Source: Streptomyces xanthii
GTDB taxonomy: Bacteria; Actinomycetota; Actinomycetes; Streptomycetales; Streptomycetaceae
Assembly (NCBI RefSeq): GCF_014621695.1
Contig: NZ_CP061281.1
Span: 7,688,001 to 7,752,000 of the forward strand
DNA length: 64,000 nucleotides
Direction: 5' to 3'
The number at the start of each line of letters is the position of its first letter. Within the stretch, counting starts at the first letter, position 1. The notes under the pieces were generated by a model. It saw nothing but the letters and a program-made list of their open reading frames with translations, had not been told where the DNA came from and searched no databases. Position numbers and translations under genes: made by a program. Of the stretch, positions 7,688 to 24,072 are shown piece by piece.

Positions 7688-7716
7688 CCAATGCTCCCGT
7701 GGTTCGGACGCGCCAC

Positions 7717-9189: not shown

Positions 9190-9310
9190 GTGGACTCCTC
9201 GGGGGACAGCCACCGGCCCGGTCGGTGCGGGCGGCGGGTGGCGCGGGTACGTGAACGGCGTGTTGCGGGGGAGGCCAGGCGTAGGGCGAGTGTCGCATGC
9301 CCGGCCGAAG

Positions 9311-9340
9311 AAGTTAACGCACTAGATAGTTAATTAACTT
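9311..9340. promoter_or_regulatory. Candidate TetR operator upstream of transporter gene
   Basis: An AT-rich island with TAAC-GC-ACTAG (9315-9325), a TAAC-N10-GTTA dyad (9315-9332) and the perfect palindrome GTTAATTAAC (9329-9338). It shares the pattern TAACNNACTAG with the site at 7721. It lies about 120 bases upstream of the transporter GTG, so it probably marks that gene's promoter. Confidence 0.5.
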
Positions 9341-9570: not shown

Positions 9571-9599
9571 CCAATCCAAGTGCGGCGCGAGGACGGATC
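9571..9599 (+). promoter_or_regulatory. SigK-type promoter of the molybdo-oxidoreductase gene
   Basis: -35 CCAATCC (9571-9577), 15-base spacer, -10 ACGGATC (9593-9599). It has the same -35 and the same spacer as three other promoters in this locus. The start codon is at 9606, seven bases after the -10, so transcription should begin at or next to the ATG and give a leaderless mRNA. Confidence 0.7.
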
Positions 9600-9605
9600 C
9601 CGAGC

Positions 9606-11255
9606 ATGGACGACGACGTTTCCTCTCCGCCGCTGCGCGGCATCCGACGCCTGACCGCCGGCGCGGTGAGCGGTCTGCTCGCCGGCTACGCGGCCATCGC
9701 GGTCGCGGAACTGGTGTCCGCGGCCGTGCGCCCGGAATCGGGCCCGGTGATCGCTGTGGGCGGTGCGGCCATCGACCGTACGCCCGCCGCGGTGAAGGAC
9801 TGGGCCATCCGGCAGTTCGGCACCGACGACAAGCTCGTGCTCCAACTCGGCATCCTCGCGGTGCTGACCGTGCTGGCCCTGGGCCTCGGCATGCTGGCCA
9901 CGCGATGGCGGCTCATCGGTTCACTGGGAGTGCTTGCCTTCGGCGTCGTCGGGGCGCTGGCCGCCACCGGCCGACCGGACTCGACCGGTGCCGGAGATGC
10001 GCTGCCCTCCACGGTCGGAGCCGTCGCGGGCGCCTGTCTGCTCTTCTGGCTCATCGGACGGCTGGGCGACGCCGACCACGGTGTGCGCGAGCGTGATCAG
10101 GCAGCTGCGGGAGGGGAGGGCAGCCCGTCCGGGACGCGCCCCGGTGACGGGGCGGACGGCTCCGGATGGGACCGGCGCGGCTTCATCCGCGCAGCCACCG
10201 CGACCGCGGCCGCCTCCACCGGTGCCGGACTCGCAGGGCGTGCGCTGAACGGATCCCAGGGCCAGGGTGCCGTCGCCTCCCGCAAGGGGATCGTCCTCCC
10301 CAGGCCGTCGTCCTCCGCGTCCCCGGTGCCGAAGGGGGCTGGGCTGCGGATCAAGGGCATCAGCCCGTTCGTGACGCCGAACGCGGACTTCTACCGGGTC
10401 GACACCGCGCTCGTCGTGCCCAAGGTCGACGCGACGTCCTGGCGACTGCGCATCCACGGGCTGGGCGTGCAGCGTGAACGCACCCTGACCTTCGACGACT
10501 TGCTGAACATGCCGCTCATCGAGCGCGACATCACGCTGACCTGTGTCTCCAACGAGGTGGGAGGCCCCTACGTCGGAAACGCCCGCTGGATCGGAGTCCG
10601 CCTGGCCGATGTGCTCGAACAGTGCGGGGTGAGGCCCCCGTCGAAGTCCGGCCCCGCCGATCAACTGGTGGCCCGCTCGGTGGACGGCATGACCATCGGC
10701 AGTCCGGTCGAGGACGTCATGGACGGACGCGACGCCCTGCTCGCCGTCGGCATGAACGGTCAGCCGCTGCCTTTCGAGCACGGCTTCCCCGTCCGCATGG
10801 TCGTCCCCGGCCTGTACGGCTATGTGTCCGCCTGCAAGTGGATCAGAGACATCGAACTGACCACGTTCGACGCCTATGACGCGTACTGGGTCGAGCGGGA
10901 CTGGGCGCAGCAGGCCCCGATCAAGACCGAGTCGCGCATCGACACGCCCAAGCCGTTCGGCCGGCCGCGGGCCGGCACCGTCATGGTGGCCGGCGTCGCC
11001 TGGGCCCAGCACCGGGGCATCGACAAGGTGGAAGTCCGGGTCGACGACGGTCCGTGGCAGGAGGCCCGCCTCGCCGCCGAGGACACGCGGGACACCTGGA
11101 GGCAGTGGTCCTACGCGTGGCAGGCGACCAAGGGCGGTCACACGCTCACCGTCCGGGCGACCGACCGCACAGGCCAGCCCCAGACGGAGAAGCGCGCCGA
11201 CACCATGCCGGACGGCGCCACCGGCTGGCACACGGTCGCGGTCACCGTCGACTGA
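9606..11255 (+). CDS. Membrane-anchored molybdopterin oxidoreductase, sulfite-oxidase fold
   Basis: 549 residues. Four predicted membrane helices lie at about 17-37, 78-98, 102-122 and 134-152. A twin-arginine-like DRRGFIRAA follows at 189-197, then an extracytoplasmic catalytic part. The Mo-cofactor domain (about 245-430) carries the conserved Cys313 in TLTCVSNEVGG and 'FPVRMVVPGLYGY'. The C-terminal dimerisation domain is at about 455-549. Members transfer electrons to or from sulfite or methionine-sulfoxide-type substrates; this one's substrate is unknown. No ribosome site precedes the ATG, consistent with a leaderless transcript from the SigK-type promoter at 9571. Confidence 0.9.
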   Translation: MDDDVSSPPLRGIRRLTAGAVSGLLAGYAAIAVAELVSAAVRPESGPVIAVGGAAIDRTPAAVKDWAIRQFGTDDKLVLQLGILAVLTVLALGLGMLATRWRLIGSLGVLAFGVVGALAATGRPDSTGAGDALPSTVGAVAGACLLFWLIGRLGDADHGVRERDQAAAGGEGSPSGTRPGDGADGSGWDRRGFIRAATATAAASTGAGLAGRALNGSQGQGAVASRKGIVLPRPSSSASPVPKGAGLRIKGISPFVTPNADFYRVDTALVVPKVDATSWRLRIHGLGVQRERTLTFDDLLNMPLIERDITLTCVSNEVGGPYVGNARWIGVRLADVLEQCGVRPPSKSGPADQLVARSVDGMTIGSPVEDVMDGRDALLAVGMNGQPLPFEHGFPVRMVVPGLYGYVSACKWIRDIELTTFDAYDAYWVERDWAQQAPIKTESRIDTPKPFGRPRAGTVMVAGVAWAQHRGIDKVEVRVDDGPWQEARLAAEDTRDTWRQWSYAWQATKGGHTLTVRATDRTGQPQTEKRADTMPDGATGWHTVAVTVD

Positions 11256-11320
11256 ATCGACGCGCGCTGTACTGCGCGCCGGGGCAGCGCCACACGCGGA
11301 TCACTCTTTCGAGCGGGCGA

Positions 11321-11349
11321 CCAATCCGTCACGCGGCCGGCGCCGGATT
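11321..11349 (+). promoter_or_regulatory. SigK-type promoter of the fasciclin gene
   Basis: -35 CCAATCC (11321-11327), 15-base spacer, -10 CCGGATT (11343-11349). It lies about 50 bases before the fasciclin ATG at 11402. Mycobacterial SigK promoters are recalled as CCATCC / CCGAAT-like, and there too a fasciclin protein (MPT70/MPT83) is the main target. Confidence 0.75.
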
Positions 11350-11401
11350 CCCCGTGATGAAGGCGGATGGCCTTCACATTCCAGATCGCTGAGGGACTGT
11401 C

Positions 11402-12055
11402 ATGCGTACTCACTTCCGTCGGGCCGCTGTCGCTGTGGTTGCCGCCGCGGTGCTGCCGTTGGCGTTGACCGCTTGCTCGGACAGTGGTTCCGAGGAGAAG
11501 GCTTCCGAGGGTTCGACGTCGGCCGCGTCGAAGGGGGCGGACCAGGCCGATCCGTCGAAGGACACGCCGGCCGGGACGAGCGAGCCGTTCGGACCGGCGT
11601 GTTCCACGGTCCCCAAGGAGGGGGCGGGCTCGTTCGACGGAATGGCCAAGGACCCGGTCGCCACGGCGGCCTCGAACAACCCCGCGCTGTCGACCCTGGT
11701 CAGTGCGGTCAAGAAGGCCGGCCTGGTCGACACGCTGAACAACGCGAAGAACATCACGGTGTTCGCGCCGACCAATGACGCCTTCGCGAAGATCCCGAAG
11801 GCCGACCTCGACAAGGTGCTCAACGACAAAGCTCAGCTGACCAAGATCCTCACGTACCACGTGGTGGGTCAGAAGCTGGCTCCCGAGGACCTGGAGAACG
11901 GCTCCTTCGAAACCCTGGAGAAGTCCAAGCTCACCACCGCCGGCTCGGGTGAGTCCTACAAGGTCAACGACAGCGCCGACGTGGTCTGCGGCAACGTCAA
12001 GACGGCCAACGCCGACGTCTACATCATCGACACCGTCCTCATGCCCGAGAAGTAG
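11402..12055 (+). CDS. Fasciclin (FAS1) domain lipoprotein, MPT83-like
   Basis: 217 residues. A lipoprotein signal ends in LTAC with the acylated Cys at residue 25. A Ser/Glu/Lys-rich linker follows, then one FAS1 domain (about 80-217) with the landmarks 'NITVFAPTNDAFAKIP' and 'LTYHVVGQKL'. It is exposed on the outer face of the membrane, probably for adhesion or cell-surface interaction. A GAGGGA ribosome site precedes the ATG. A SigK-type promoter precedes it and two terminators follow, so it is a monocistronic unit. In mycobacteria the homologues MPT70/MPT83 are controlled by SigK/RskA, and both regulators are encoded 6-7 kb away here. Confidence 0.93.
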   Translation: MRTHFRRAAVAVVAAAVLPLALTACSDSGSEEKASEGSTSAASKGADQADPSKDTPAGTSEPFGPACSTVPKEGAGSFDGMAKDPVATAASNNPALSTLVSAVKKAGLVDTLNNAKNITVFAPTNDAFAKIPKADLDKVLNDKAQLTKILTYHVVGQKLAPEDLENGSFETLEKSKLTTAGSGESYKVNDSADVVCGNVKTANADVYIIDTVLMPEK

Positions 12056-12107
12056 ACGGTTCCGCTGCCGCGCGGGCCGAGGTGCGGAAGCAGCGCGTTG
12101 CGGCCGC

Positions 12108-12143
12108 CGGGACGGCGGGACACGATCCTGTCCCGCCGTCCCG
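12108..12143. terminator. Hairpin terminator after fasciclin gene
   Basis: A 14-bp perfect stem (12108-12121 with 12130-12143) and 8-base loop, 52 bases after the fasciclin stop. It is convergent with the operon that ends at 12178. Confidence 0.75.
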
Positions 12144-12179
12144 AGGAGGGCTCCACGGGGTCACCGTGGAGCCCTCCTC
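12143..12179. terminator. Second hairpin terminator, facing the lipid operon
   Basis: A 16-bp perfect stem (12143 or 12144 to 12158 with 12164-12179) and 5-base loop. It overlaps the stop codon of the DUF1295 gene, the last gene of the leftward operon, and sits back to back with the previous hairpin. Confidence 0.75.
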
Positions 12180-12981
12180 ACGGCTTCCGGGGCGGCAGGG
12201 GAAAGAACCCGCTGGTGCGGCGCTGGTATGCGGCATAGCCCGGACGCGTGGCCATGTGCTGCTCGAGAAGCCTCTTGCCGCTGCCCCGGGTCAGGAGAAC
12301 GCTCATCACGATCGGGGAGATCACGCAGACGGCGGCCACCACGGGGACGTCGCAGGTGAGCAGGAAGAGCCCCCACCAGACGCAGAAGTCCCCGAAGTAG
12401 TTGGGGTGTCTGGTCCAGGACCACAGACCCCGGTCCATGATCTGGCCGCGATGAGCGGGATCCGCCTTGAAGCGGGCGAGTTGGGCGTCACCGACCGCTT
12501 CGAAGGAGACACCCAGCGCCCACAGCGCGATGCCCAGGACAGAGACGGCGGACAGCGGAAGTCCGATGTACTGCGCGGCCTGGACGGGCAGGGAGACGAG
12601 CCACACCAGGGCCCCCTGCAGGAGGTAGACATGGCTCAGCGCGTACAGCATCGGGTTTCCGGGGGCCTTGGCCAGCATCCGGGCGTACCGGGGATCCTCG
12701 CCCTGGCCGCGCCCGCGCCGACCGATGTGCACGGCCAGCCGCAGTCCCCACACAGCGGTCAGACCGGCGACCAACAGTCGGCGTGAAAGGTCTCCGTGTC
12801 CGTGTGAAGCGGCCAGTGTCACCACCGCGACGGCGGTGAAGGCGATGCCCCAGGCGATGTCCACGATCCGGTGGACTCCGGTCCGAAGCGAGACGGCGAA
12901 CGTCGCCAGGACGACGGCGAGAGCCGCGCCGGCACTCCAGGCGAGGTTCAGCGCGAATGCTCCCCAGGGAAAGCCGCTCAC
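12178..12981 (-). CDS. DUF1295 integral membrane protein (ICMT/steroid-reductase-like)
   Basis: 267 residues. The GTG start overlaps the preceding stop (GTGA), so it is translationally coupled. There are six or seven membrane helices. The family signature 'RGLWSWTRHPNYFGDFCVWWG' near residue 195 resembles the NAD(P)H/SAM-binding end of isoprenylcysteine methyltransferases and sterol reductases. Its likely role is reduction or methylation of a lipid intermediate in the membrane. It is the last gene of the SigK-driven operon, and the equivalent in M. tuberculosis (recalled as Rv0446c) also adjoins the SigK locus. Confidence 0.88.
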   Translation of the reverse strand: MSGFPWGAFALNLAWSAGAALAVVLATFAVSLRTGVHRIVDIAWGIAFTAVAVVTLAASHGHGDLSRRLLVAGLTAVWGLRLAVHIGRRGRGQGEDPRYARMLAKAPGNPMLYALSHVYLLQGALVWLVSLPVQAAQYIGLPLSAVSVLGIALWALGVSFEAVGDAQLARFKADPAHRGQIMDRGLWSWTRHPNYFGDFCVWWGLFLLTCDVPVVAAVCVISPIVMSVLLTRGSGKRLLEQHMATRPGYAAYQRRTSGFFPLPPRKP

Positions 12982-14288
12982 CGGTCCGCCAGCCCTTCGT
13001 ACCAGGTCGGGACATCCGTGGCGGCCGCGGAGACGCCGGGGCCGGGCCGGACGCACAGGATCTGGTCGACTCCCATCCGGCCCTGCTCGAAGGCGAGTCC
13101 GCCGCCGGCGAGGTAGAGACGCCACACGCGAGCGGCCTCCTCGCCCACGAGGCCGACGAAGCCGTCCCAGTCCGCCTCGAGCGTGTGATGCCAGGCGGCG
13201 ATGGTACGGACGTAGTCCTCCCGCATCGCCTCGACGTGGCGTACCTCCAGGCCCGCGGCCTCAAGCAGCCCCGTCGTCTCGCCGAGCGGGCGCATGTGCA
13301 TGTCCGGCGCGATGTACGTCTCGATGAACGGGCCACCGCCGGGCGCGTTGTGCCGGCGCGACATCTGCTGGACGAGCACACGCCCGCTCGGCATCACCAG
13401 ACGGCACAGGGCTTCGGCGAACGCCGGGTACTGGCCGTCCCCGACATGCTCACCCATCTCGACCGCCGCCACGCCGTCGAAGCCACCGCCCTCGATGTCG
13501 CGGTAGTCCTGGCAGACCACCTCGACACGGTCGGACAGACCGCGTGCGCGGACCCGCTCCCGGACATGGGCTGCCTGCTGCCCGGCCAGGGTCACGGCGG
13601 TCACGGACACGCCGTGGTGCTCCGCGGCATGCAGGGTGAGCGATCCCCATCCGCAGCCGATGTCGAGGAGCCTGGTGCCGGGACGCAGCGCGAGTTTGCG
13701 GCAGATGAGTTCGAGTTTGGCCCGCTGCGCGTCAGCCGGGGTGAAGCCGGAGTCCGTGCGGGCCCAGTATCCGCAGGAGTACGCCATGGTCTCGTCGAGC
13801 AGCCGCTGGTAGAAGGTGTTGGACAGGTCGTAGTGGTGGCTGATCGCGGCCCGGTCGCGGGCACGGCTGTGCGGGCTTCCGTGCAGCCGAGCCCGGCCGG
13901 CCGGGGCGGGAGGACGGGGTCCGAGGGCGCCGAGCCGGATCGCGAGGGCTGCCGCACGGGCGCGGTCGGTGGGCGTCGCCCTGGGGGCCCGCAGCCCGTG
14001 TTCCCGTGCCGCCGCCCACATCGAGCGCAGTCCTTCCGTGAGCTCGCCCTCCACATCGACGTCCTGCGCGATGTAGGCCTCAGCGAGGCCCAACTCGCCC
14101 GGCTGCCACAGGAGTCGGCGCAGGGCGCGCCGGTGGCGCAGCACGACCACGGGCCCGCTGTCGGGGCCGGCCTCGCTGCCGTCCCAGGCGCGGAGCCGGA
14201 CCGGCAGAGGTCCGCCGAGGACGGTGGCCGCGAGGGCGGCGACCCGCGGTGCGACTCCGCTGCGCAACGTTCGGAGCAGACGCGTCAT
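12978..14288 (-). CDS. CFA/UfaA1-type fatty acid methyltransferase (second copy)
   Basis: 436 residues. It is a SAM-dependent methyltransferase of the cyclopropane-fatty-acid synthase group, acting on double bonds of membrane phospholipid acyl chains. Key elements are 'ISHHYDLSNTFYQRLLDETM', the SAM loop LLDIGCGWGSL (about 205-215), the motif 'AVEMGEHVG', and a C-terminal 'VWRLYLAGGGLAFEQGRMGV'. The ATG overlaps the previous stop (ATGA). It could make a cyclopropane, a 10-methyl or a methylene branch; sequence alone does not decide. It differs clearly from the neighbouring copy, so the two probably do different steps. Confidence 0.9.
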   Translation of the reverse strand: MTRLLRTLRSGVAPRVAALAATVLGGPLPVRLRAWDGSEAGPDSGPVVVLRHRRALRRLLWQPGELGLAEAYIAQDVDVEGELTEGLRSMWAAAREHGLRAPRATPTDRARAAALAIRLGALGPRPPAPAGRARLHGSPHSRARDRAAISHHYDLSNTFYQRLLDETMAYSCGYWARTDSGFTPADAQRAKLELICRKLALRPGTRLLDIGCGWGSLTLHAAEHHGVSVTAVTLAGQQAAHVRERVRARGLSDRVEVVCQDYRDIEGGGFDGVAAVEMGEHVGDGQYPAFAEALCRLVMPSGRVLVQQMSRRHNAPGGGPFIETYIAPDMHMRPLGETTGLLEAAGLEVRHVEAMREDYVRTIAAWHHTLEADWDGFVGLVGEEAARVWRLYLAGGGLAFEQGRMGVDQILCVRPGPGVSAAATDVPTWYEGLADR

Positions 14289-15538
14289 CGGACGTGATCC
14301 TCCTTGGTGAGCAGGTACTGCTGGACATCGAGGTAGCCGGAGCGGAAGCCGGCCTCGGAGTAGGCGAGGTAGAAGGTCCACAGGCGTTGGAAGGTCTCGT
14401 CGAAGCCGAGGTCGCGCACGTCCTGCTCGCGACGGGTGAACCGTTCGCGCCACAGGCGCAGTGTTTCCGCGTAGTGCGGGCCGAAGGCGTCACGTCGGGC
14501 GACGGTGAGACGGGTGTGGTCCCGCACCGTCTCGGCCACGGCCCTCGTCGACGGGATCATTCCGCCGGGGAAGACGTACTTGTGGATCCAGGTGAAGGTG
14601 GACCGCGTGGCGAGCATGCGCGCGTGTGGCATCGTGATGGCCTGGATCACGGCCCGGCCGCCGGGCACGAGTCGTTCGTCCAGGGTGCGGAAGTAGGTGG
14701 GCCAGAACTCGGCGCCGACCGCCTCGATCATCTCCACGCTCACGACGGCGTCGTACTGCCCACGTGCTTCCCGGTAGTCGCACAGTTCCACGCGGGCGCG
14801 GTCCTGGAGGCCCGCCTCTGTGATGCGCCGCCGGGCCAGGACCTGTTGTTCTCGCGAGAGCGTCAGGGACGTGACCTCGGCCCCGCGCGCCGCGGCCCGC
14901 AGGCACAGTTCGCCCCAGCCGGTGCCGATCTCCAACAGGCGGGTGCCGGGGCCCACCTGGGCCAGGTCGAGCAGCCTGTCGATCTTGCGGTGCTGAGCGG
15001 CGGCGAGCTGGTCCCAAGTGGCGGGCAGGGAACGGAAGACGGCGCTGGAGTACGTGAGGGTCTCGTCCAGGAAGAGGGCGAACAGGTCGTTGGACAGGTC
15101 GTAGTGGCGGCTGATGTTGGCGCGGGCGCCGTGCCGGGTGTTGCGTTCCTCGGCCGGATGACGCGGTGCCCACAGACCGCGAAGGCGTTGCAGGGGCGCC
15201 GGGACGAGTTCGTCGGCATGGGCGGCCAGCACGGTCAGCACGGAGACCAGATCCGGTGCGTCCCATTCACGGGCCATGTAGGACTCGCCGAAGCCGACGA
15301 GGCCCGATGCGCCGATCCGCGCGTGGAACGCGTCGGGGTCTTCTATGTCCAGCAGTGGGCCGCCCAGGCCGGCGAAGGGGGTTCCCTTGATTCTGGCCCG
15401 CAGGGGGAGGCGGTCCAGAGCGCGCCGGAGGATCAGCTCGGTGAGTCTCCTGCGGGCGCGTGATGTCCTGGGCGCCGCGATGATGTCGGGCCAGCGCGCC
15501 GGGTCGACCGTGTCCTTCCGGTGGCACGTCGTCGTCAT
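14285..15538 (-). CDS. CFA/UfaA1-type fatty acid methyltransferase (first copy)
   Basis: 417 residues, same family as the next gene. Visible elements are 'ISRHYDLSNDLFALFLDETLTYS', the SAM loop LLEIGTGWGEL, 'VSVEMIEAVG' and 'YLAYSEAGFRSGYLDVQQYLL' at the end, the last being typical of the class. Its ATG overlaps the DUF1365 stop, and its stop overlaps the following ATG. In M. tuberculosis the corresponding locus has a single copy (ufaA1, recalled), so the tandem pair is a difference here. Confidence 0.92.
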   Translation of the reverse strand: MTTTCHRKDTVDPARWPDIIAAPRTSRARRRLTELILRRALDRLPLRARIKGTPFAGLGGPLLDIEDPDAFHARIGASGLVGFGESYMAREWDAPDLVSVLTVLAAHADELVPAPLQRLRGLWAPRHPAEERNTRHGARANISRHYDLSNDLFALFLDETLTYSSAVFRSLPATWDQLAAAQHRKIDRLLDLAQVGPGTRLLEIGTGWGELCLRAAARGAEVTSLTLSREQQVLARRRITEAGLQDRARVELCDYREARGQYDAVVSVEMIEAVGAEFWPTYFRTLDERLVPGGRAVIQAITMPHARMLATRSTFTWIHKYVFPGGMIPSTRAVAETVRDHTRLTVARRDAFGPHYAETLRLWRERFTRREQDVRDLGFDETFQRLWTFYLAYSEAGFRSGYLDVQQYLLTKEDHVR

Positions 15539-16257
15539 GCCGAGTCCTTTCGTGTGTCATCGCCCCGGCGGGGCTGGACAGGCAGTCCTCGCAGGTAGAG
15601 GCGAACTCCGTGAAATCTGATGGCAGCCGCCGCCGCGAGCGGGGAGAGAGGGTGGCGCACGGCAAGGCGCAGCAGTTGTGCGGCGGTGGCGCTCCTGCGT
15701 TCTCCGCGTACGCGTGCACTGAAGGCCCGGCCCTCCGAGCGGTCCAGATGCACCGTCAGATCCAGGCTCTGCCGCGGCAGCGGGAGCCGCATGCGGTAGT
15801 GACCGTCGACCGCGAAGAACGGTGAGACGTAGAACTGCTTGGCGGTGCTCGCGCTGCCGTCCGGCGCGGGCCTCAGGAGGTAGCAGTGACGGCCGCCGTA
15901 GGTGTTGTGGACCTCGGCGACCACGTACCGGACGCCGCCGTCGGGTCCGTGGCACCAGTACACGGTCAGCGGATTGAAGACGTAGCCGAACACGCGTGCC
16001 TGCGTCAGCATCGTCACCATGCCGCCGTCGAGGCGCAGGCCGTTGCGAGCGAGGAATGCGTCCAGACCGGCACGGATGGTGGGCCGGTCGCCGCCGAAGT
16101 GGTCGCGCGCGTCGAAGCGCGCCAGCACACGCAGGGGCCATGGGAGGCGCGGGAGGTGATCGGGGTCGACGAGCCACAGGTAGGTGCGATGGCGCAGGGT
16201 GTAGCGCGTGGGGCGGGCGCGCACATGAGTGATGGTGCAGGGGTAGAGGGCGGCCAT
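15535..16257 (-). CDS. DUF1365 family protein
   Basis: 240 residues from ATG. A GTG three codons earlier overlaps the upstream stop (GTGA) and is an equally possible coupled start. The family signature is clear: 'LYPCTITHVRARPTRYTLRHRTYLWLVD', 'FGYVFNPLTVYWCH' and 'AEVHNTYGGRHCYLL'. The function is not established. DUF1365 proteins consistently sit between an FAD oxidoreductase and a CFA synthase, so they are assumed to act in modified fatty acid synthesis. Confidence 0.92.
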   Translation of the reverse strand: MAALYPCTITHVRARPTRYTLRHRTYLWLVDPDHLPRLPWPLRVLARFDARDHFGGDRPTIRAGLDAFLARNGLRLDGGMVTMLTQARVFGYVFNPLTVYWCHGPDGGVRYVVAEVHNTYGGRHCYLLRPAPDGSASTAKQFYVSPFFAVDGHYRMRLPLPRQSLDLTVHLDRSEGRAFSARVRGERRSATAAQLLRLAVRHPLSPLAAAAAIRFHGVRLYLRGLPVQPRRGDDTRKDSA

Positions 16258-16262
16258 CGTGT

Positions 16263-17561
16263 TCACCAGCGTCCGCCGAGCGCCGCGGCCGCCCGCACGC
16301 CGGAGCGGCACCCGTCCTCGTGGAATCCCCAGCCGTGATAGGCGCCGGCGAAGGCACACACGGAGCTGTTCAGGTCGGGAAGCAGACGCTGGGCGGCCAC
16401 GGACCGGGGGGTGTACAGGGGATGTTCGTAGACCATCCGCGCCAGGACGGTGTCCGGATCGACGCGGTCGTGGCCGCCGAGGGTGACGACGTAGGTCTCG
16501 GCCGCCGTGAGTCTCTGCAGGCGGTTCATGTCGTAGCTGACCCGCACACGGTCGGCCCCGGCCGCGCAGGACGGCATGACGTAGTTCCACGAAGCCCGGG
16601 CGCCACGGGCCGCCGGCAGCAAGGAGGTGTCGGTGTGCAGCAGAGTCTCGTTGCGCGCGTAGGAGAACGCGCCAAGTGCCGTGCGCTCCGCCGCACTCGG
16701 GTCCGCGAGGAGCCGCAGGGCCTGGTCGGGGTGGACCGCGATCACCACCGAGTCGTACGTGGACGTGGCTCCATCGGCGGTGGTGACGTCCGCGCCGTCC
16801 GGATGCCGCCGTACCGCCTTGACCGCGGCCCCGGTGCGGACCTCGTGCACGTGCTTGGCCGCCCTGTCGACGTACTCGCGGGAACCTCCGGTCACGGTGC
16901 GCCACACCGGGGAGCCGCCGACGGACAGCAGCCCGTGATGGTCCAGGAAACGGAACAGGTACGCGGCGGGATAGTCCTGCGCGATCGCGGCGTCGCACGA
17001 CCACACCGCCGACACCACCGGTGTGACGAAGTGCGTGCGGAAGTACGGGGAGAAGCCCGAGCGCTCGAGAAACCCGCCGAGCGTGATCCCGCTGTCGGCG
17101 CCTGCGGCCAGGAGCCTGCGGGCGGCGCGGTGGAAGAGCGGCACCTCGGACAGCAGCCGCAGGTAGCGAGCGCTGACGAGATTTCGCGGGCGGGCGAAGA
17201 GGCCCGCGAGGCCGCGCGCCCCCGCGTACTCGAGACCGCAGCCCTCGCACCGCACGGACATGCTCATCTCGGACTCCTGGGTGGCGACGCCCAGTTCGTC
17301 GAAGAGCCTCAGCAGGTTCGGATAGGTGCGACGGTTGTGCACGATGAACCCGGAGTCCACCCGCTGCGGACGCCCGTCCGCGCGCGAGACGAGATCGTGC
17401 GTATGGGCGTGCCCGCCGAGCCGTTCGTCCGCCTCGAACAAGGTCACCCGGCGGGTACGGGACAGGATGTAGGCGGCGGTGAGACCGGCGATGCCGGCGC
17501 CGATGATCGCCGTGCCACGTGGCTCCCGCACCGTGGGTGTCCGCTCGGATTCGCCTGTCAT
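16263..17561 (-). CDS. FAD-dependent oxidoreductase (amine-oxidase/desaturase fold) of lipid operon
   Basis: 432 residues. The N-terminal FAD site IIGAGIAGLTAAYIL is followed by the second FAD motif 'FEADERLGGHAHTHDLV' and the substrate-domain start 'RVDSGFIVHNRRTYPNL'. It belongs to the NAD(P)-binding amine-oxidase-like group always found with DUF1365 and CFA synthases (Rv0449c type, recalled). It may oxidise or reduce an acyl chain before or after methyl transfer. First gene of the five-gene operon, it is preceded by a GGGGAGAG ribosome site and a SigK-type promoter. Confidence 0.9.
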   Translation of the reverse strand: MTGESERTPTVREPRGTAIIGAGIAGLTAAYILSRTRRVTLFEADERLGGHAHTHDLVSRADGRPQRVDSGFIVHNRRTYPNLLRLFDELGVATQESEMSMSVRCEGCGLEYAGARGLAGLFARPRNLVSARYLRLLSEVPLFHRAARRLLAAGADSGITLGGFLERSGFSPYFRTHFVTPVVSAVWSCDAAIAQDYPAAYLFRFLDHHGLLSVGGSPVWRTVTGGSREYVDRAAKHVHEVRTGAAVKAVRRHPDGADVTTADGATSTYDSVVIAVHPDQALRLLADPSAAERTALGAFSYARNETLLHTDTSLLPAARGARASWNYVMPSCAAGADRVRVSYDMNRLQRLTAAETYVVTLGGHDRVDPDTVLARMVYEHPLYTPRSVAAQRLLPDLNSSVCAFAGAYHGWGFHEDGCRSGVRAAAALGGRW

Positions 17562-17600
17562 CTTCTCTCCCCTGGCCGGCTGATCTCCGCTGTCTCACGT

Positions 17601-17629
17601 AATCCGGAGCAGGTCCGAGGACGGATTGG
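17601..17629 (-). promoter_or_regulatory. SigK-type promoter of the lipid-modification operon
   Basis: On the minus strand: -35 CCAATCC (17629-17623), 15-base spacer, -10 CCGGATT (17607-17601), about 40 bases before the FAD oxidoreductase ATG. Confidence 0.78.
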
Positions 17630-17685
17630 CGCGGTCGATCAGCCGACCGCCGGTTGCGCGTCGAAGGCGGTGGGGCCTCGTCGGG

Positions 17686-18435
17686 TCAGGCCGGGAGCTT
17701 CATCAGGGCGATGGGCGCTGAGGTCGGATGCTCGGAACCGCCGGCCGGCTCGACGGTGATACCGATGCCGGACGCACCGTCCACGGCGCCGTCCAGCAGG
17801 ACGGCCTGGTCGGTTCGGGCGGTGTCCATGAGCCCGGCGGGCCGCATGGTGCCGCTGTCGTCGAACCACAGCTGGTACACCTTGCCGCGTGGCGGTCGGG
17901 CCATGTCGGAGGCGAGGAAGACGGCCCGGTCGCGTTCGTGGGAGACGACCACCGTGCCGGAGGCCCCGTCGGCGAGCTCGGTGGCGAGGCTCTTCGCGTC
18001 GGATGCGGAGAGGACCTCGGCGATGTGCTGGTTGTCCTGCTGTGCCTGGCGGGCCTGTTCGGTCGCGTCCTGCGCGCGCTCGTGCTGCCACACGGCGGTG
18101 CCGCCCAGTGCCGCGGCCGCCGCGAGACACGCGGCGAGCGCCCACCGCGAGGCTTGCCGCCACCGCAGGCCGCGGGCGATCCGCTCCGAGCGGGGTGCCC
18201 CGGGCTGTTCCTGCCGGACGGTGGTGATGCGGCGCAGTACCTCCTCGCGCAGCGCGGGGGAGGGAGTCGTCGTGGCCGCCAGGCCCAGGCGGGCCGCGGT
18301 GGCGGTCAGTTCGGCGGTCTCGTCGCGGCAGGCCTCGCACTCGGCGAGGTGGCGTTCGAACGCGGCGCGCTCCTCGTCCGGCAGCGCGTGCAGCGCGTAG
18401 GCGCCGGTGAGTGTGTGCAGGTCGGCGGTGCTCAC
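17686..18435 (-). CDS. rskA: Anti-sigma factor RskA (zinc-type, membrane)
   Basis: 249 residues. The N-terminal anti-sigma domain has the zinc motif His29-x3-Cys33-x2-Cys36. A single membrane helix lies at about 97-116, and an extracytoplasmic RskA domain (about 135-249) follows. It should hold SigK inactive until regulated proteolysis of the membrane protein releases it. The ATG overlaps the sigK stop (ATGA), so the two are made in fixed ratio. A redox role for the Cys pair has been proposed in mycobacteria. Confidence 0.93.
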   Translation of the reverse strand: MSTADLHTLTGAYALHALPDEERAAFERHLAECEACRDETAELTATAARLGLAATTTPSPALREEVLRRITTVRQEQPGAPRSERIARGLRWRQASRWALAACLAAAAALGGTAVWQHERAQDATEQARQAQQDNQHIAEVLSASDAKSLATELADGASGTVVVSHERDRAVFLASDMARPPRGKVYQLWFDDSGTMRPAGLMDTARTDQAVLLDGAVDGASGIGITVEPAGGSEHPTSAPIALMKLPA

Positions 18436-19016
18436 GCGGTCACCCCCAGGCAGTCGCGCAGCCGGATCAGTCCGTCACGCAGGCGGGTCTTGACCGTGCC
18501 CAGCGGCACGGTCAGGGCCTCCGCCACCTGCCGGTAGGTCAGCCCACGGTAGTAGGCGAGCGTGACGGCCTGGCGCTGGATCTCGGTGAGGGTGCGCAGA
18601 CAGCGGCGCACCTGCTCCCGCTCCAGACGGGCCTCCACCTGCTCGGTCACCTCGTCGAACTCGGGAGTGCGGGCGAGCTGTGCGGCTCTGCGCTCGCGGG
18701 CGGTCGACGCCTCCACCGACCGCACCCGGTCGATGGCCCGCCGGTGGGCCAGGGTGAGGATCCAGTTGATCGCCGTGCCCAGGTCCGGCCGGTAGCGCGG
18801 TGCGGTGCGCCACACCTCCACCAGCACCTCCTGGGCGACCTCCTCGGACTGTGCCCGGTCGCGCAGCACGGCTCGTACGGTGCCCAGGACGGGGCCCATC
18901 ACCACGTCGTAGACCGAGGCGAACGCGGATTCGTCACCGAGGGCGGCCCGGCCCACCAACGCCTCCAGGTCCGGTTCGGCGTCGGGGTGACGGCCGATGT
19001 GCACAGCTTCCATCAC
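18432..19016 (-). CDS. sigK: ECF sigma factor SigK
   Basis: 194 residues with region 2 (about 30-95, 'SEEVAQEVLVEVWRTAPRY', 'ILTLAHRRAIDRVR') and region 4 (about 135-185, 'LAYYRGLTYRQVAEALTVP' and 'GTVKTRLRDGLIRLR'). The call as SigK rests on its coupling to RskA, and on the neighbouring FAD oxidoreductase - DUF1365 - methyltransferase - DUF1295 operon and fasciclin gene, the set recalled for M. tuberculosis sigK. Its own promoter matches the other SigK-type promoters, giving positive autoregulation. Confidence 0.93.
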   Translation of the reverse strand: MMEAVHIGRHPDAEPDLEALVGRAALGDESAFASVYDVVMGPVLGTVRAVLRDRAQSEEVAQEVLVEVWRTAPRYRPDLGTAINWILTLAHRRAIDRVRSVEASTARERRAAQLARTPEFDEVTEQVEARLEREQVRRCLRTLTEIQRQAVTLAYYRGLTYRQVAEALTVPLGTVKTRLRDGLIRLRDCLGVTA

Positions 19017-19051
19017 AGGTTTCTCCGCAGGGGCTCGACGGTTCTACTTCT

Positions 19052-19080
19052 CATTCGGTGCGGACGGGGAAACGGATTGG
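19052..19080 (-). promoter_or_regulatory. SigK-type autoregulatory promoter of sigK-rskA
   Basis: On the minus strand: -35 CCAATCC (19080-19074), 15-base spacer, -10 CCGAATG (19058-19052), 36 bases before the sigK ATG. It shares its -35 and spacer length exactly with the promoters at 9571, 11321 and 17601. Confidence 0.78.
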
Positions 19081-19936: not shown

Positions 19937-20449
19937 TCAACCGGCCCTCGCCGGTCCCGGAGCGGTCGGCTGATTCGGCTTCCCGTCCCGGCCCGGGTGG
20001 CGGTGACGCCAGTACGGATTGTCGTGCGGCAGTTTGCTGGAGACCCGGCCGTACATGCCGAACGTCGCGATCAGCAGCCCCATGGCGAAGCTGAACAGGA
20101 CGTTGGTCATGCCGAAGTCCAGGAAATTGGCCGAGCGGTCGAGGACGAAGAGATGGAAGAAGCCGCTCAGCAGGAACAGACCGCCCACGGCCATGTTCAG
20201 GACGGAGGCGATGTTGCCTCCGGCCACGGCTCCCGCGAGGAGCAGGAAGCCGACCGCGGTGGAGATGACGCTCAGCGTGACATTGCTGGTCATCCCGGCG
20301 ATCGTCTCGCCCGCTGTGTCGAAGGGGCTGAGCGCGTCCGCGAAGCCGAGGCCGGCGAAGACGAGGAGCAGCAGTCCGCAGAATCCGGCGCCGAAACGGT
20401 AGACGGTCGCCAGGCGGTGGTCGACGGGAAGTTCGTCTCGTAGCTTCAT
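19937..20449 (-). CDS. DUF4383 membrane protein
   Basis: 170 residues with four membrane helices and the family's 'N.ADN.LHL.L'-like region, here 'FHLFVLDRSANFLDFGMTN'. The role is unknown; members are usually stress-responsive in actinomycetes. The upstream region has only a partial resemblance to the SigK promoter, which I do not call. It is convergent with the hydrolase. Confidence 0.82.
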   Translation of the reverse strand: MKLRDELPVDHRLATVYRFGAGFCGLLLLVFAGLGFADALSPFDTAGETIAGMTSNVTLSVISTAVGFLLLAGAVAGGNIASVLNMAVGGLFLLSGFFHLFVLDRSANFLDFGMTNVLFSFAMGLLIATFGMYGRVSSKLPHDNPYWRHRHPGRDGKPNQPTAPGPARAG

Positions 20450-20687: not shown

Positions 20688-22070
20688 ATGACCGTCGCAG
20701 TCGTCCTGTTCACCGCGGACCTGCGTCTGCACGACCACCCCCCGCTGCACGCCGCCCTGCGCGCGGGGGACGAGGTCGTCCCGCTGTTCGTACGTGATCC
20801 GGGGGTGCACGCGGCCGGCTTCGACGCACCCAACCGCCGGGCGTTCCTCGCCGACTGCCTCACCGATCTCGACGAGCGGCTCCGGCAGCGCGGCGGCCGC
20901 CTGGTGATCCGCAGCGGCCCGGTCGCCCGGGAGGTGCGCGCCGTCGCCGCCGAGTGCGGGGCCACCGAGGTGCACATGGCAGCGGACGTGACCTCCTACG
21001 CCCACCGGCGCGAGCAGCGCTTGCGCGAGGCACTGGACCCGGACGGAGTGACACTGCACGTCCATGACTCCGTGACCACCGCCGTCGCTCCCGGCGCGGT
21101 GACACCGGCCGGGAGCGACACCGACCACTACAGCGTGTTCACCCCGTACTTCCGCCGCTGGTCGCAGGTGCCGCAGCGCGAGCCGCTGCCGGCACCGCGC
21201 ACCGTGCGCGTCCCCGAAGCGGCTCGCGGCGAGGGCCCGCCGTCGTCGAAGGACGTCGACGGAACCTCGCCCGGACTCCCCGAGGGTGGCGAGACGGCCG
21301 GCCGGGCCCGCTGCGCCCGGTGGTGGGGCGCCGGTGACCTGTCCCGGTACGAGGACCGGCACGACGACCTGGCGGGCGACGCCACCTCCCGGCTGTCGCC
21401 CTACCTCCACTTCGGGACCCTGTCGCCCGTCGAGGCCGTCCACCGTGCCCGCGCGCACGGCGGCCCCGGGGCGGAGGCGTTCATCCGGCAGGTGTGCTGG
21501 CGCGACTTCCACCGACAGGTCCTCGCCTCCCGCCCCGAAGCGGCGGCCGCGGACTACCGCTCCCGGAACGACCGGTGGCGGGGTGAGGACGACGCGGCGG
21601 AGGACATCGCCGCATGGCGGGAGGGCCGCACCGGCTATCCGGTCGTGGACGCCGGCATGCGGCAACTGCGCGAGGAGGGCTGGATGCACAACCGCGCCCG
21701 CCTGCTGACGGCCAGCTTTCTCACCAAGACGCTGTACGTGGACTGGCGCATCGGTGCCCGGCACTTCCTCGACCTGCTCGTCGACGGGGACGTGGCCAAC
21801 AACCAGCTCAACTGGCAGTGGGTGGCCGGCACCGGAACGGACACCCGCCCGCACCGCGTCCTCAACCCGGTCGTCCAGGGCAAGCGCTTCGATCCGCGCG
21901 GCACGTACGTCCGCCGCTGGGTGCCCGAACTCGAGGGCGTCGAGGACCGCCTGGTGCACGAGCCCTGGAGGCTGCCCCGCGAGACCCGGGCCGGGCTCGG
22001 CTACCCGGAACCGCTCATCGACCTCGCGGACGGCCTGGCCCGCTTCAAGCAGGCACGCGGCCGGGACTGA
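20688..22070 (+). CDS. phr: Deoxyribodipyrimidine photolyase (cryptochrome/photolyase family)
   Basis: 460 residues. The N-terminal antenna domain (about 1-130) starts VVLFTADLRLHDHPPLHAAL. The C-terminal FAD domain has 'RLSPYLHFGTLSP', 'FIRQVCWRDFHRQ', 'GYPVVDAGMRQLREEGWMHNRARL' and 'DGDVANNQLNWQWVAGTGTD'. These are the standard class I CPD photolyase motifs, including the region that clamps the flavin. It uses blue light to split pyrimidine dimers. A GGAGAG ribosome site precedes the ATG. It lies beside LitS/LitR-like regulators, so light-induced expression is likely. Confidence 0.95.
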   Translation: MTVAVVLFTADLRLHDHPPLHAALRAGDEVVPLFVRDPGVHAAGFDAPNRRAFLADCLTDLDERLRQRGGRLVIRSGPVAREVRAVAAECGATEVHMAADVTSYAHRREQRLREALDPDGVTLHVHDSVTTAVAPGAVTPAGSDTDHYSVFTPYFRRWSQVPQREPLPAPRTVRVPEAARGEGPPSSKDVDGTSPGLPEGGETAGRARCARWWGAGDLSRYEDRHDDLAGDATSRLSPYLHFGTLSPVEAVHRARAHGGPGAEAFIRQVCWRDFHRQVLASRPEAAAADYRSRNDRWRGEDDAAEDIAAWREGRTGYPVVDAGMRQLREEGWMHNRARLLTASFLTKTLYVDWRIGARHFLDLLVDGDVANNQLNWQWVAGTGTDTRPHRVLNPVVQGKRFDPRGTYVRRWVPELEGVEDRLVHEPWRLPRETRAGLGYPEPLIDLADGLARFKQARGRD

Positions 22071-22144: not shown

Positions 22145-22747
22145 TCAGTGCGCGGGCTGTTCCAGACGGAGCCGCAGCGTGTGCATTCCCCGGCGGGCAT
22201 GGCTCTTCACCGTGCCCAGAGGAAGCCCGGTGCGGGCGGCGATCTGCGATTGGGGGAGGTCCGCGTAGAAGGTCAGCCACAGGACCTCCCGCTGCGCGGG
22301 CGGCAGCAGGCTCAGCTCGTGCCGGACCACGACGCGGTCCACGGTCTGCTGCGCCAGCCGTCCCTCCGGCAGCGGTACGTGCATGTCCTGCTCGGACCGT
22401 GCCGCGGCGGCGAGACGGGCCTGACGGGCCCGGGCCGCGTGGGCATCCGCGATCTTGTGCCGGGCGATGCCGACGAGCCAGGAGGGGGCGTTGCCCCGCT
22501 CGGGACGGAATCCCCGGCGGCCCTGCCAGGCCGCGAGGAAGACTTGCTGGGTGACGTCCTCGGCATCCCGGGAGTCGCCGAGCGCGCGCCTCGCGATGTT
22601 GTGCACGAGGGCCGCCCACCGCTCGTACACCTGCCTGCAGCCGTCCTCGTCGCCCCGCAGAAAGGCCTCGGCGAGCACTTTGTCGGTGGGGACCCCCGCC
22701 ACGGTGGCCGAACCTTGCTCCGGGTGCACCTTGTGCGTCGTGGTCAT
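22145..22747 (-). CDS. litS: ECF sigma factor, LitS-like
   Basis: 200 residues from an ATG with GAGGAG ten bases upstream; an in-frame GTG three codons earlier would overlap that site. Region 2 is 'DAEDVTQQVFLAAWQGRRGFRPERGN'. Region 4 is 'LPPAQREVLWLTFYADLPQSQIAARTGLPLGTVKSHARRGMHTLR'. Its position between a photolyase and a B12-binding MerR regulator matches the light-inducible carotenoid/photolyase regulon of S. coelicolor (litS, litR), so a role in light-induced transcription is likely. No anti-sigma gene is adjacent. Confidence 0.82.
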   Translation of the reverse strand: MTTTHKVHPEQGSATVAGVPTDKVLAEAFLRGDEDGCRQVYERWAALVHNIARRALGDSRDAEDVTQQVFLAAWQGRRGFRPERGNAPSWLVGIARHKIADAHAARARQARLAAAARSEQDMHVPLPEGRLAQQTVDRVVVRHELSLLPPAQREVLWLTFYADLPQSQIAARTGLPLGTVKSHARRGMHTLRLRLEQPAH

Positions 22748-22933: not shown

Positions 22934-23047
22934 ATGAGCGGCAACAGGCACCGTGACGTGTGTGAGGTGCGGGACGTCGGGGCGCGCTCGGCAGGTCTGC
23001 ACTCCGCCCCCGTACGGGGAACCGTACTGACGTCGGATCGACCGTGA
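22934..23047 (+). CDS. 37-residue upstream ORF coupled to the LitR-like gene
   Basis: ATG with a very strong GAAGGAGGG ribosome site seven bases away; the peptide begins MSGNRHRDVCEVRDVGARSA and ends LTSDRP. Its TGA overlaps the GTG of the regulator gene (GTGA), so ribosomes finishing it should re-initiate there. The regulator has no separate good ribosome site, so its translation probably depends on this ORF. No homologue is recognised. Confidence 0.6.
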   Translation: MSGNRHRDVCEVRDVGARSAGLHSAPVRGTVLTSDRP

Positions 23048-24072
23048 CGCGTCGGGGAACGGCCGGCGGGCCGGAGGAGACGGCTCCGGACGAGCCCGTC
23101 GGCGCCGCCCTCACCACCGGAGCACTCGCGCGCAGGCTCGGCGTCGCCCAGACGACGCTGCGCACCTGGGAGCGGCGCTACGGCATCGGCCCCAGCCACC
23201 GTGAGGAGGGCCGCCACCGCCGCTGGTCACCCGAAGACGTGGCCCGGATGGAGAACATGTGCCGGTTGACCGCGCAGGGCGTCGCGCCTGCAGAGGCGGC
23301 ACGGCTGGCGATGGCGGCGGACGGTCGCGCGACGGACCGCGCCGCCCCCGCGCCGCGCCCCCGTACCCCGGGTGGCTTCCGTGACCTGCCGCTGGGTCAG
23401 GTCTGGCCGGAAAGCAGAGGCCTGGCGCGCGCTGCCGTGCGGCTCGACGCCTCGGCCGTGCAGGCCCAACTGCGTGCCGCGGTCGACGCGTACGGGGTCG
23501 TGGTGGCCTGGGAGCAGATCATCGCCCCGACCCTGCACGCCGTCGGTCGCAAGTGGGCGACGGCCGACGAGTCGTACGTCGAAGTGGAGCACCTGCTCTC
23601 CTGGCACGTGTCGACCGTGCTCCGGTCGGTGGGTGCGTCCGCCACGGTGGGTGCGTCCGCCACGGTGGGTACGTCCTCCGCGGACGGGCGCCCGCCGGTC
23701 CTGCTCGCCTGCATGCCGGACGAACAGCACAGTCTGCCGAGCGAGGCCCTGTGGGCGGCGCTCACCGAGCGGGCCCTGCCCGCCCGGATCTTCGGGGCCG
23801 CGCTGCCGAAAGAGGCTCTGGAATCGGCGGCCCGGCGACTCGGTCCGGCAGCCGTCGTCCTCTGGTCGCAGTCCCGCGAGACCGCGGACATGAGCATGGT
23901 CCGCACGCTCCTCGCCCTTGAATGGGGCGTCCGCGGAGCCCGGAGCCATCCCCTGGTCCTCCTCGCGGGCCCTGGCTGGGCCGACGCACCGGCGGAGCCA
24001 GGAGCGAGCCGCCTCACCGGACTCGCCTCCGGCCTGGCGCTTCTCGAGTCGATGTACCGCGCGAGCGGGTAG
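23044..24072 (+). CDS. litR: LitR/CarH-like MerR regulator with B12-binding domain
   Basis: 342 residues. A MerR helix-turn-helix (about 23-90, 'LARRLGVAQTTLRTWERRYG') is followed by a helical bundle and a Rossmann-like cobalamin domain. CarH proteins bind adenosylcobalamin through a W-x9-EH motif and a lower-ligand His. Here the counterparts are Trp171 and Glu182-His183 (one residue longer spacing) and His229 in 'MPDEQHSLP'. In the dark it should repress light-inducible genes, and light would break the Co-C bond and release DNA. Residues 196-213 are an unusual repeat insert (see 23629). The start is translationally coupled to the upstream ORF. Confidence 0.85.
   Translation: MTRRGTAGGPEETAPDEPVGAALTTGALARRLGVAQTTLRTWERRYGIGPSHREEGRHRRWSPEDVARMENMCRLTAQGVAPAEAARLAMAADGRATDRAAPAPRPRTPGGFRDLPLGQVWPESRGLARAAVRLDASAVQAQLRAAVDAYGVVVAWEQIIAPTLHAVGRKWATADESYVEVEHLLSWHVSTVLRSVGASATVGASATVGTSSADGRPPVLLACMPDEQHSLPSEALWAALTERALPARIFGAALPKEALESAARRLGPAAVVLWSQSRETADMSMVRTLLALEWGVRGARSHPLVLLAGPGWADAPAEPGASRLTGLASGLALLESMYRASG
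23629..23682. repeat. 18-bp in-frame tandem repeat inside litR
   Basis: Two identical 18-base units (23629-23646, 23647-23664) and a degenerate third encode VGASAT-VGASAT-VGTSSA. They sit between the EH helix and the B12 Rossmann domain. Copy number could vary by slippage without breaking the frame. Confidence 0.8.

What the first reader, a model, noticed from the sequence alone, without database searches (positions are those of the whole stretch)
9571..19080. Four identical-architecture SigK promoters define a regulon in one locus
CCAATCC, exactly 15 bases, then CCGGATT/CCGAATG/ACGGATC occurs upstream of the molybdo-oxidoreductase (9571), fasciclin (11321), FAD oxidoreductase operon (17629, minus) and sigK itself (19080, minus). 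Spacer length is invariant. The gene set matches the recalled M. tuberculosis SigK/RskA regulon (mpt70/83, Rv0444c-Rv0449c), but here it gains a membrane Mo-oxidoreductase and a second methyltransferase.
Basis: partly seen in the sequence, partly recalled or inferred. Interest (0 to 1): 0.75.

Follow-up and report, generated by a model that had tools for sequence, protein, structure and literature searches.

The report
SigK regulon packed in one locus
A soil bacterium carries a sigma-factor switch with four matching promoters that drive a compact set of membrane-lipid and envelope genes, and the gene set suggests that the switch, whose trigger is unknown, answers light-driven oxidative damage.

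Summary
Confirmed. CCAATCC-N15-NCGRAT stands exactly where stated. In the 8.35 Mb genome the strict pattern (spacer 13-17) has four matches, all in this locus. In 80 related loci the spacer is 15 in 148 sites, 16 in 3, 22 in 2, and no other length from 8 to 25 occurs; the reversed control gives none. Sites precede sigK, the FAD operon, the Mo-oxidoreductase and sometimes fasciclin, but not rskA or the inner operon genes. This is a SigK-RskA regulon; SigK sites are already reported as conserved in Actinobacteria (PMC7509140). New here: (1) the Mo-oxidoreductase start codon lies 7-8 nt behind the -10 in all 33 relatives with a site (of 38 orthologs), so its mRNA should be leaderless; (2) Mo-oxidoreductase and second methyltransferase are common in relatives, not gains of this strain; (3) FAD-DUF1365-methyltransferase match the furan fatty acid kit UfaD-UfaO-UfaM; Rhodobacter sphaeroides controls such genes by sigmaE-ChrR, with fasciclin and photolyase, against singlet oxygen; (4) photolyase and B12-MerR/ECF genes (probably LitR/LitS) sit beside sigK here and in some relatives. 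I infer, unproven, that SigK answers photo-oxidative envelope damage, which makes its unknown signal testable.

The parts
9571..9598 (+). SigK-type promoter of the Mo-oxidoreductase: -35 9571-9577, -10 9593-9598; predicted start of transcription 9606 (the A of the ATG)
   Evidence: (20.3 bits)
9606..11255 (+). membrane Mo-oxidoreductase (PF00174) with N-terminal hydrophobic stretches and an internal twin-arginine stretch; predicted leaderless mRNA
   Evidence: (sulfite dehydrogenase/oxidase family); start 7 nt after -10; membrane and Tat features read from the sequence
11321..11348 (+). SigK-type promoter of fasciclin: -35 11321-11327, -10 11343-11348
   Evidence: 28.1 bits
11402..12055 (+). 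fasciclin lipoprotein (lipobox LTAC read from the sequence), relative of MPT70
   Evidence: PF02469; 1nyo 3e-36; astaxanthin-binding fasciclin 8c18 5.7e-10
17602..17629 (-). SigK-type promoter of the FAD operon: -35 17623-17629, -10 17602-17607
   Evidence: 29.3 bits
16263..17561 (-). FAD oxidoreductase, UfaD-like
   Evidence: PF01593; 37-45% identical to proteobacterial counterparts beside DUF1365
15535..16263 (-). DUF1365 protein, UfaO-like
   Evidence: PF07103; UfaO carries DUF1365
14285..15538 (-). CMAS-type methyltransferase A, UfaM-like
   Evidence: 37-44% identical to the CMAS behind DUF1365 in three proteobacterial records
12978..14288 (-). CMAS-type methyltransferase B (second methyltransferase; role unknown)
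12178..12981 (-). DUF1295 membrane protein, last gene of the operon
   Evidence: PF06966
19053..19080 (-). SigK-type promoter of sigK-rskA: -35 19074-19080, -10 19053-19058
   Evidence: 28.8 bits
18432..19016 (-). sigK, ECF sigma factor; Cys139 and Cys189 align with two cysteines of M. tuberculosis SigK
17686..18435 (-). rskA, anti-sigma factor with HxxxCxxC (read from the sequence) and RskA_C domain
20688..22070 (+). photolyase beside the regulon; no SigK site; context, not shown to belong
22145..22747 (-). second ECF sigma factor (LitS-like, label recalled); context
23044..24072 (+). MerR regulator with B12-binding domain (LitR/CarH-like, LitR label recalled); context

Best explanation
An autoregulated SigK-RskA switch. 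RskA holds SigK; on a signal SigK is freed, and RNA polymerase with SigK starts at the four CCAATCC-N15-NCGRAT promoters: sigK-rskA itself (feedback), the FAD-DUF1365-CMAS-CMAS-DUF1295 operon, the Mo-oxidoreductase, and fasciclin. Transcription should begin about 8 nt after the -10, so the Mo-oxidoreductase mRNA starts at its ATG and needs no ribosome binding site. Shown by sequence: promoters, gene families, conservation, start-codon spacing. Inferred: the operon makes a methylated, probably furan-type, phospholipid fatty acid; fasciclin and the Mo-oxidoreductase protect or repair the envelope; the signal is oxidative, most likely photo-oxidative (singlet oxygen or its lipid products). I put the promoter and regulon part at about 0.93, and the furan/photo-oxidative part at about 0.4.
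For: Only four strict sites in the genome, all here. Genus scan: strict motif (spacer 14-16) in 237 of 295 genomes; reversed control one hit each in 12 of 295 by my count. 215 of 244 genomes with a SigK match have it against 22 of 51 without, Fisher p 3e-11. In 80 loci spacer 15 in 148 sites, 16 in 3, 22 in 2, other lengths from 8 to 25 none. Site within 250 nt of sigK 63/80, fad 25/36, Mo-oxidoreductase 31/35, fasciclin 6/42; rskA 0/79, DUF1365 0/36, CMAS-A 0/37, CMAS-B 0/30, DUF1295 0/44. Start codon 7-8 nt behind the -10 in 33 of 33 Mo-oxidoreductases with a site, of 38 orthologs; the same 7 nt at 3 of 12 sites outside the genus, before fad (L214) and DUF1365 (L209, L210), and before the Rhodococcus abh-fad-DUF1365-CMAS run. 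Both SigK cysteines in 81 of 81 sequences of the 80 loci and the window, in 5 of 11 outside. Function: R. palustris ufaD, ufaO, ufaM bear consecutive numbers in this order and suffice for furan fatty acid synthesis in a mutant host; UfaO has a DUF1365 domain (PMC7380195). The R. sphaeroides RpoE regulon holds RSP_1091 (UfaD), RSP_1090 (UfaO), a CMAS, photolyase and a fasciclin, and 13 of its 15 genes are induced by singlet oxygen (PMC7074977). ECF/ChrR genes within 3 kb of FAD-DUF1365 in alphaproteobacterial records. Light raises mpk70/mpk83 in M. kansasii (PMC9861118). Photolyase directly behind rskA in 5 of 80 loci and nearby in 11 more.
Against: No expression data. 9 of 12 sites outside the genus do not show the 7-nt gap, nor do sigK or, mostly, fad in Streptomyces (naive choice of starts). 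6 of 11 SigK sequences outside the genus lack the cysteines. No SigK site precedes the photolyase in the window or in 16 of 16 relatives. UfaD, UfaO and UfaM themselves were not compared, only counterparts from other proteobacteria; no furan lipid is shown in this organism; DUF1295 and CMAS-B have no place in the published pathway as I read it.
Confidence: 0.8

Rival explanations
1. Same regulon, but the operon makes a cyclopropane or mid-chain methyl-branched fatty acid that stiffens the membrane; no furan is formed and the stress is general (redox, detergent, cold).
For: Both methyltransferases score best against cyclopropane fatty acid synthases in the PDB and against CfaB and cyclopropane synthase families. 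The Rv0447c protein has been linked to tuberculostearic acid (recalled).
Against: A CMAS stands directly behind FAD-DUF1365, the UfaD-UfaO pair, and UfaM is itself related to cyclopropane synthases (recalled). No NCBIfam cyclopropane cut-off is reached by either (best 274 of 650 and 244 of 600).
Confidence: 0.3
2. SigK senses thiol/disulfide or metal state of the envelope through its own two cysteines and RskA; light plays no part.
For: The cysteines are kept in 81 of 81 genus sequences; in M. tuberculosis they form a disulfide depending on oxidants (PMC8103513 passage). A Mo-oxidoreductase of the sulfite oxidase family fits sulfur redox chemistry.
Against: The furan kit, photolyase and B12-MerR neighbours, and light induction of the homologous antigens in M. 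kansasii, point to photo-oxidation. The two readings overlap.
Confidence: 0.25
3. The four sites belong to another sigma factor or a transcription factor and the nearness to sigK is incidental.
For: 22 of 51 genomes without a SigK match at E 1e-45 still have a strict site.
Against: A site stands before sigK in 63 of 80 loci; [quoted passage not shown] CCATCC or CCAATCC with N15 recurs at 11 of 40 SigK stretches outside the genus.
Confidence: 0.04

Closest known systems
SigK-RskA regulon of Mycobacterium tuberculosis and relatives (ECF19; PMC7509140 places that SigK in ECF18)
   Same: SigK subfamily, RskA with RskA_C, paired cysteines, a fasciclin (MPT70-type), FAD-DUF1365-CMAS-DUF1295 gene families (M. 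tuberculosis gene set recalled), two-box promoter ending CCGAAT/CCGGAT
   Different: -35 CCAATCC instead of CCATCC (M. tuberculosis form recalled); sigK-rskA has its own SigK-type promoter apart from the FAD operon (in M. tuberculosis autoregulation runs through the Rv0449c promoter, PMC7509140); Mo-oxidoreductase and second CMAS present; fasciclin is local
RpoE (sigmaE)-ChrR regulon of Rhodobacter sphaeroides
   Same: ECF plus anti-sigma control of FAD-DUF1365 genes, a CMAS and a fasciclin; photolyase in the regulon there, nearby here
   Different: Another ECF/anti-sigma family: RskA scores 21.5 bits against ChrR (cut-off 124.5); promoter differs (recalled); no gene described as Mo-oxidoreductase in the 15-row published table
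Furan fatty acid pathway UfaM-UfaD-UfaO (PMC7380195)
   Same: Gene families and gene order ufaD-ufaO-ufaM as in Rhodopseudomonas palustris (by locus numbers)
   Different: Second CMAS and DUF1295 added; activity untested; organism not known here to hold furan lipids
LitR-LitS light response of Streptomyces (recalled)
   Same: B12-MerR gene, ECF gene and photolyase 1.7-5 kb from sigK
   Different: Neighbour only; no SigK site before the photolyase

Membership tests
SigK-RskA (ECF19) | Sigma factor over the SigK subfamily cut-off | tested here: met
   NF007228 276.9 bits, cut-off 226
SigK-RskA (ECF19) | Adjacent anti-sigma factor with RskA_C and zinc-finger N-terminus | tested here: met
   PF10099 109.1 bits, zf-HC2 32.3, RskA_N 30.4; helix 1/2 resemble the AS19-1 consensus printed in PMC7406223 (passage)
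SigK-RskA (ECF19) | Paired cysteines (133 and 183 in M. tuberculosis) | tested here: met
   Aligned with 4nqw; 81 of 81 genus sequences, 5 of 11 outside
SigK-RskA (ECF19) | Promoter CCATCC with CCGAAT (consensus recalled) | tested here: inconclusive
   Here CCAATCC-N15-NCGRAT, a variant -35; CCATCC-N15 at 9 places in 40 stretches outside the genus; the paper with the published consensus is not held
SigK-RskA (ECF19) | SigK-type site before an MPT70/MPT83-type fasciclin | tested here: met
   Site at 11321 before a fasciclin, 1nyo E 3e-36
SigK-RskA (ECF19) | SigK-dependent transcription | not testable with these tools
   Needs RNA work
RpoE-ChrR (ECF11) | Anti-sigma of ChrR family | tested here: not met
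   TIGR02451 21.5 bits, cut-off 124.5
Furan fatty acid pathway | UfaD, UfaO, UfaM families in one operon | tested here: inconclusive
   Families and order fit; identity only to proxies: 37-45% (FAD), 31-39% (DUF1365), 37-44% (CMAS-A) to proteobacterial counterparts; the Ufa proteins themselves were not at hand
Furan fatty acid pathway | Furan fatty acid formed | not testable with these tools
   Needs GC-MS
LitR/CarH light regulators | MerR domain plus B12-binding domain | tested here: met
   PF13411 and PF02607; CarH equivalog cut-off not reached (60 of 400)

The most novel reading that the evidence does not exclude
SigK-RskA is the actinobacterial counterpart of sigmaE-ChrR: a photo-oxidative (singlet oxygen) switch whose core output is a furan fatty acid pathway plus a fasciclin scavenger, with leaderless mRNAs for key enzymes. 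The furan lipid or its oxidation product would feed back on RskA. This would explain the unknown signal of the whole SigK family.
Probability: 0.4. Interest if true: 0.8.

Novelty: new variant of a known kind. Interest (0 to 1): 0.58.

Why it matters
The stimuli of SigK-RskA are called obscure in print (PMC9861118 passage). Here all strict-motif sites of a genome lie in one 10-kb locus of a harmless genus, its enzyme families have a known pathway elsewhere, and that pathway serves singlet oxygen defence. One mutant, one lipid analysis and one light experiment in a laboratory Streptomyces would test the idea. The fixed 7-8 nt gap also predicts the SigK transcription start by sequence alone.

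Tried and rejected
Chance: rejected. Additional targets in this genome: of 20 one-mismatch sites 15 lie in genes and none reaches the score of the four. SigK control of the photolyase through its own site: no site in the window or in 16 of 16 relatives. A residue of SigK region 4 that explains CCATCC versus CCAATCC: none separates the groups (84 against 8 sequences); P171/G173 are fixed in the CCAATCC group, but L217 and L238 carry them with CCATCC. A Neisseria sigmaE paper holding the letters CCAATCC was unrelated. CMAS-B as FufM: no FufM sequence at hand, left open. The 42 sites labelled by naive ORF choice were not used for counts; one search replaces that labelling.

Errors of mine: note 2 says 149 and 2 sites; searches give 148 and 3.
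Full report
The observation. A single box is not remarkable: CCAATCC occurs six times in the window, as expected. The two-box pattern is. In the whole genome (8,354,710 bases, 3 contigs) CCAATCC-N13..17-MCGRAT has four matches, reversed control none, and all four lie in this locus. The expected number in these 9.5 kb is 0.0007 by base composition. Twenty further sites have one mismatch (reversed control four); by my own ORF scoring 15 of them lie inside genes, and the best scores 16.4 against 20.3 to 29.3 for the four.

The genes. Reading outward from sigK: sigK (18432-19016, minus; SigK subfamily 276.9 bits, cut-off 226) and rskA (17686-18435; RskA_C, zinc finger), then the operon FAD oxidoreductase, DUF1365, CMAS-A, CMAS-B, DUF1295 (17561 down to 12178), with fasciclin (11402-12055, plus) and the Mo-oxidoreductase (9606-11255, plus) beyond it. 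The fasciclin matches MPT70 (1nyo, 3e-36) and, more weakly, an algal-type astaxanthin-binding fasciclin (8c18, 5.7e-10). The Mo-oxidoreductase belongs with sulfite dehydrogenases and oxidases (best E 1e-20) more than with 1xdq, listed as bacterial sulfite oxidase and recalled as MsrP/YedY (7e-6). Its hydrophobic N-terminus and the twin-arginine stretch before the Mo domain are my reading of the sequence.

Conservation. A scan of named genomes gave 80 loci, 78 of them titled Streptomyces, from 76 genomes by their titles (four give two loci each). In their 1.49 Mb the two boxes stand 15 apart in 148 sites, 16 apart in 3 and 22 apart in 2; the other lengths from 8 to 25 give none and the reversed control none. 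Sites stand within 250 nt of sigK in 63 of 80, fad in 25 of 36, the Mo-oxidoreductase in 31 of 35 and fasciclin in 6 of 42, but of rskA in 0 of 79, DUF1365 0 of 36, CMAS-A 0 of 37, CMAS-B 0 of 30, DUF1295 0 of 44, photolyase 0 of 16 and the alpha/beta hydrolase 2 of 26 (the second numbers are orthologs whose upstream stretch was in hand). Fasciclin often stands right behind the Mo-oxidoreductase; in L068, L070, L078, L121 and L138, where it does not, it has its own site. The window has both: the two genes are neighbours, yet fasciclin has its own site. The profile shows added conservation: A before CCAATCC (78%), G after it (81%), G at the third base before the -10 (97%), and TAC after it (66, 60, 83%).

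Genus scan. In 295 genomes of the genus the pattern (spacer 14-16, -10 beginning with A or C) occurs in 237; the reversed control hits once each in 12 by my count. SigK at E 1e-45 or better occurs in 244. 215 of 244 with SigK have the motif, 22 of 51 without do (Fisher p 3e-11). The misses count on both sides: 29 SigK genomes have no strict site, and 22 genomes without a SigK match have one. The SigK matches include a second group, 62-67% identical to the window SigK, that lies divergent from a DUF4331 gene, mostly with the same motif.

Start of transcription. In the window 7 nt separate the -10 from the Mo-oxidoreductase ATG. Of 38 orthologs in the 80 loci, 33 have a strict site, and in all 33 the first in-frame start codon lies 7 or 8 nt behind the -10 (29 GTG and 1 ATG at 7; 2 ATG and 1 GTG at 8), with recurrent N-termini of the VTDDEK type. 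Outside the genus 7 nt is found at 3 of 12 N15 sites, before fad (L214) and DUF1365 (L209, L210), and before the hydrolase that leads FAD-DUF1365-CMAS on a Rhodococcus plasmid (gene positions), each with CCATCC-N15-CCGAAT; the other 9 of 12 have other distances or no start found. This predicts leaderless mRNAs for these genes and sets the SigK start at about the eighth base behind the -10. It is a prediction from spacing; no RNA was seen.

Two -35 types. The common core is ATCC-N15-NCGRAT. No residue of SigK region 4 separated the groups cleanly.

What the operon may make. In R. palustris RPA2571, 2570 and 2569 are ufaD, ufaO and ufaM; they suffice for a furan fatty acid in an R. sphaeroides triple mutant, and UfaO has a DUF1365 domain (PMC7380195: abstract, two results sections and a passage read). 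The window operon starts with the same three families in the same order. Compared with plasmid records found through DUF1365 (79 records, 40 listed, 7 opened by my choice), the window FAD protein is 37-45%, DUF1365 31-39% and CMAS-A 37-44% identical to the proteobacterial counterparts, CMAS-B 30-32%. Of the 7 records, 5 have an ECF/anti-sigma pair within 3 kb of the FAD gene (L250, L251, L252, L254, L255), 3 of these annotated ChrR; 2 have a fasciclin; 1 has a photolyase; 2 (L249, L253) have no ECF in the stretch. The Ufa and FufM sequences themselves were not at hand.

Why photo-oxidation. The R. sphaeroides RpoE regulon, as tabled in PMC7074977 (passages), lists among 15 genes rpoE, chrR, cfaS, the photolyase phrA, RSP_1091, RSP_1090 and fasciclin RSP_1409; 13 of 15 are induced by singlet oxygen. 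The same paper notes that R. capsulatus RpoE, itself singlet-oxygen induced, is closer to M. tuberculosis SigK (34%) than to R. sphaeroides RpoE (24%). In Chlamydomonas the SAK1-dependent singlet-oxygen genes include two CFA genes, a fasciclin-like protein, a DUF1365 gene and MSRA3 (PMC4067076 passages). In M. kansasii light raises the fasciclin genes mpk83 and mpk70, and the paper calls the SigK-RskA stimuli obscure (PMC9861118 passages). In a UV-exposed actinobacterium RskA protein falls (PMC8965627 passages). In the window a photolyase, an ECF factor and a MerR regulator with a B12-binding domain lie 1.7 to 5 kb from sigK; LitS and LitR are recalled labels. In the 80 stretches photolyase lies in 16, the MerR gene in 11 and the second ECF in 10; in 5 the photolyase follows rskA on the same strand by about 25 to 130 nt. 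These loci are related by descent, so the counts are not independent.

Prior art. SigK binding sites are stated to be highly conserved among Actinobacteria, with SigK orthologs acting on the mpt70 promoter (PMC7509140, outline and passages, citing a 2008 paper that is not held). So the promoter class is known. In my searches the only listed paper holding both 'SigK' and 'furan fatty acid' was PMC7074977, the latter in a reference title; one search listed 12 of 351 papers, so this is a limited statement. The listings show, by title, no paper on this regulon in Streptomyces.

Verdict. The finding is real and well read. It is a member of the SigK-RskA kind with genus-specific features: variant -35, separate autoregulatory promoter, Mo-oxidoreductase, second methyltransferase. 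The link to furan fatty acids and photo-oxidative stress is an inference from gene families, neighbours and published parallels; it is what makes the finding worth a test.

Noticed in passing
L063 9109, L067 13152, L077 13303 (each minus strand): In 12 of 80 loci a second SigK-type site about 62 bp from the Mo-oxidoreductase site faces away from it and not into the FAD operon; in the three loci read (L063, L067, L077) it faces another ECF sigma gene, a possible SigK to ECF cascade, absent from the window locus.
   Followed up: partly
for example L033, L034, L043, L062, L145, L149, L159, L192, L194: A second SigK group (62-67% identical) is divergent from a DUF4331 gene, mostly with the same CCAATCC-N15 motif; elsewhere in several of those genomes a site stands 104-116 nt before a gene for a 217-226-aa protein, zinc-finger type in the one scanned.
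   Followed up: partly
window 19937-24072: DUF4383 gene, photolyase, ECF sigma factor and B12-MerR regulator next to sigK, probably the Lit light-response module (label recalled).
   Followed up: partly
window 4270-9213: TetR regulator, a protein like 3-dehydroshikimate dehydratase QuiC (625 bits, below its cut-off of 1200), shikimate dehydrogenase and MFS transporter: a likely quinate/shikimate catabolic operon; an AT-rich stretch near 9312-9340 could be an operator.
   Followed up: no
L253 (Salinivibrio proteolyticus plasmid): MerR regulator, photolyase, SDR, FAD, DUF1365 and CMAS in one run of genes: the furan kit beside a MerR regulator instead of an ECF.
   Followed up: no
own genome, locus L021: A one-mismatch site (12.3 bits) lies 200 nt before a gene that reads like metK (SAM synthetase); perhaps chance.
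   Followed up: no
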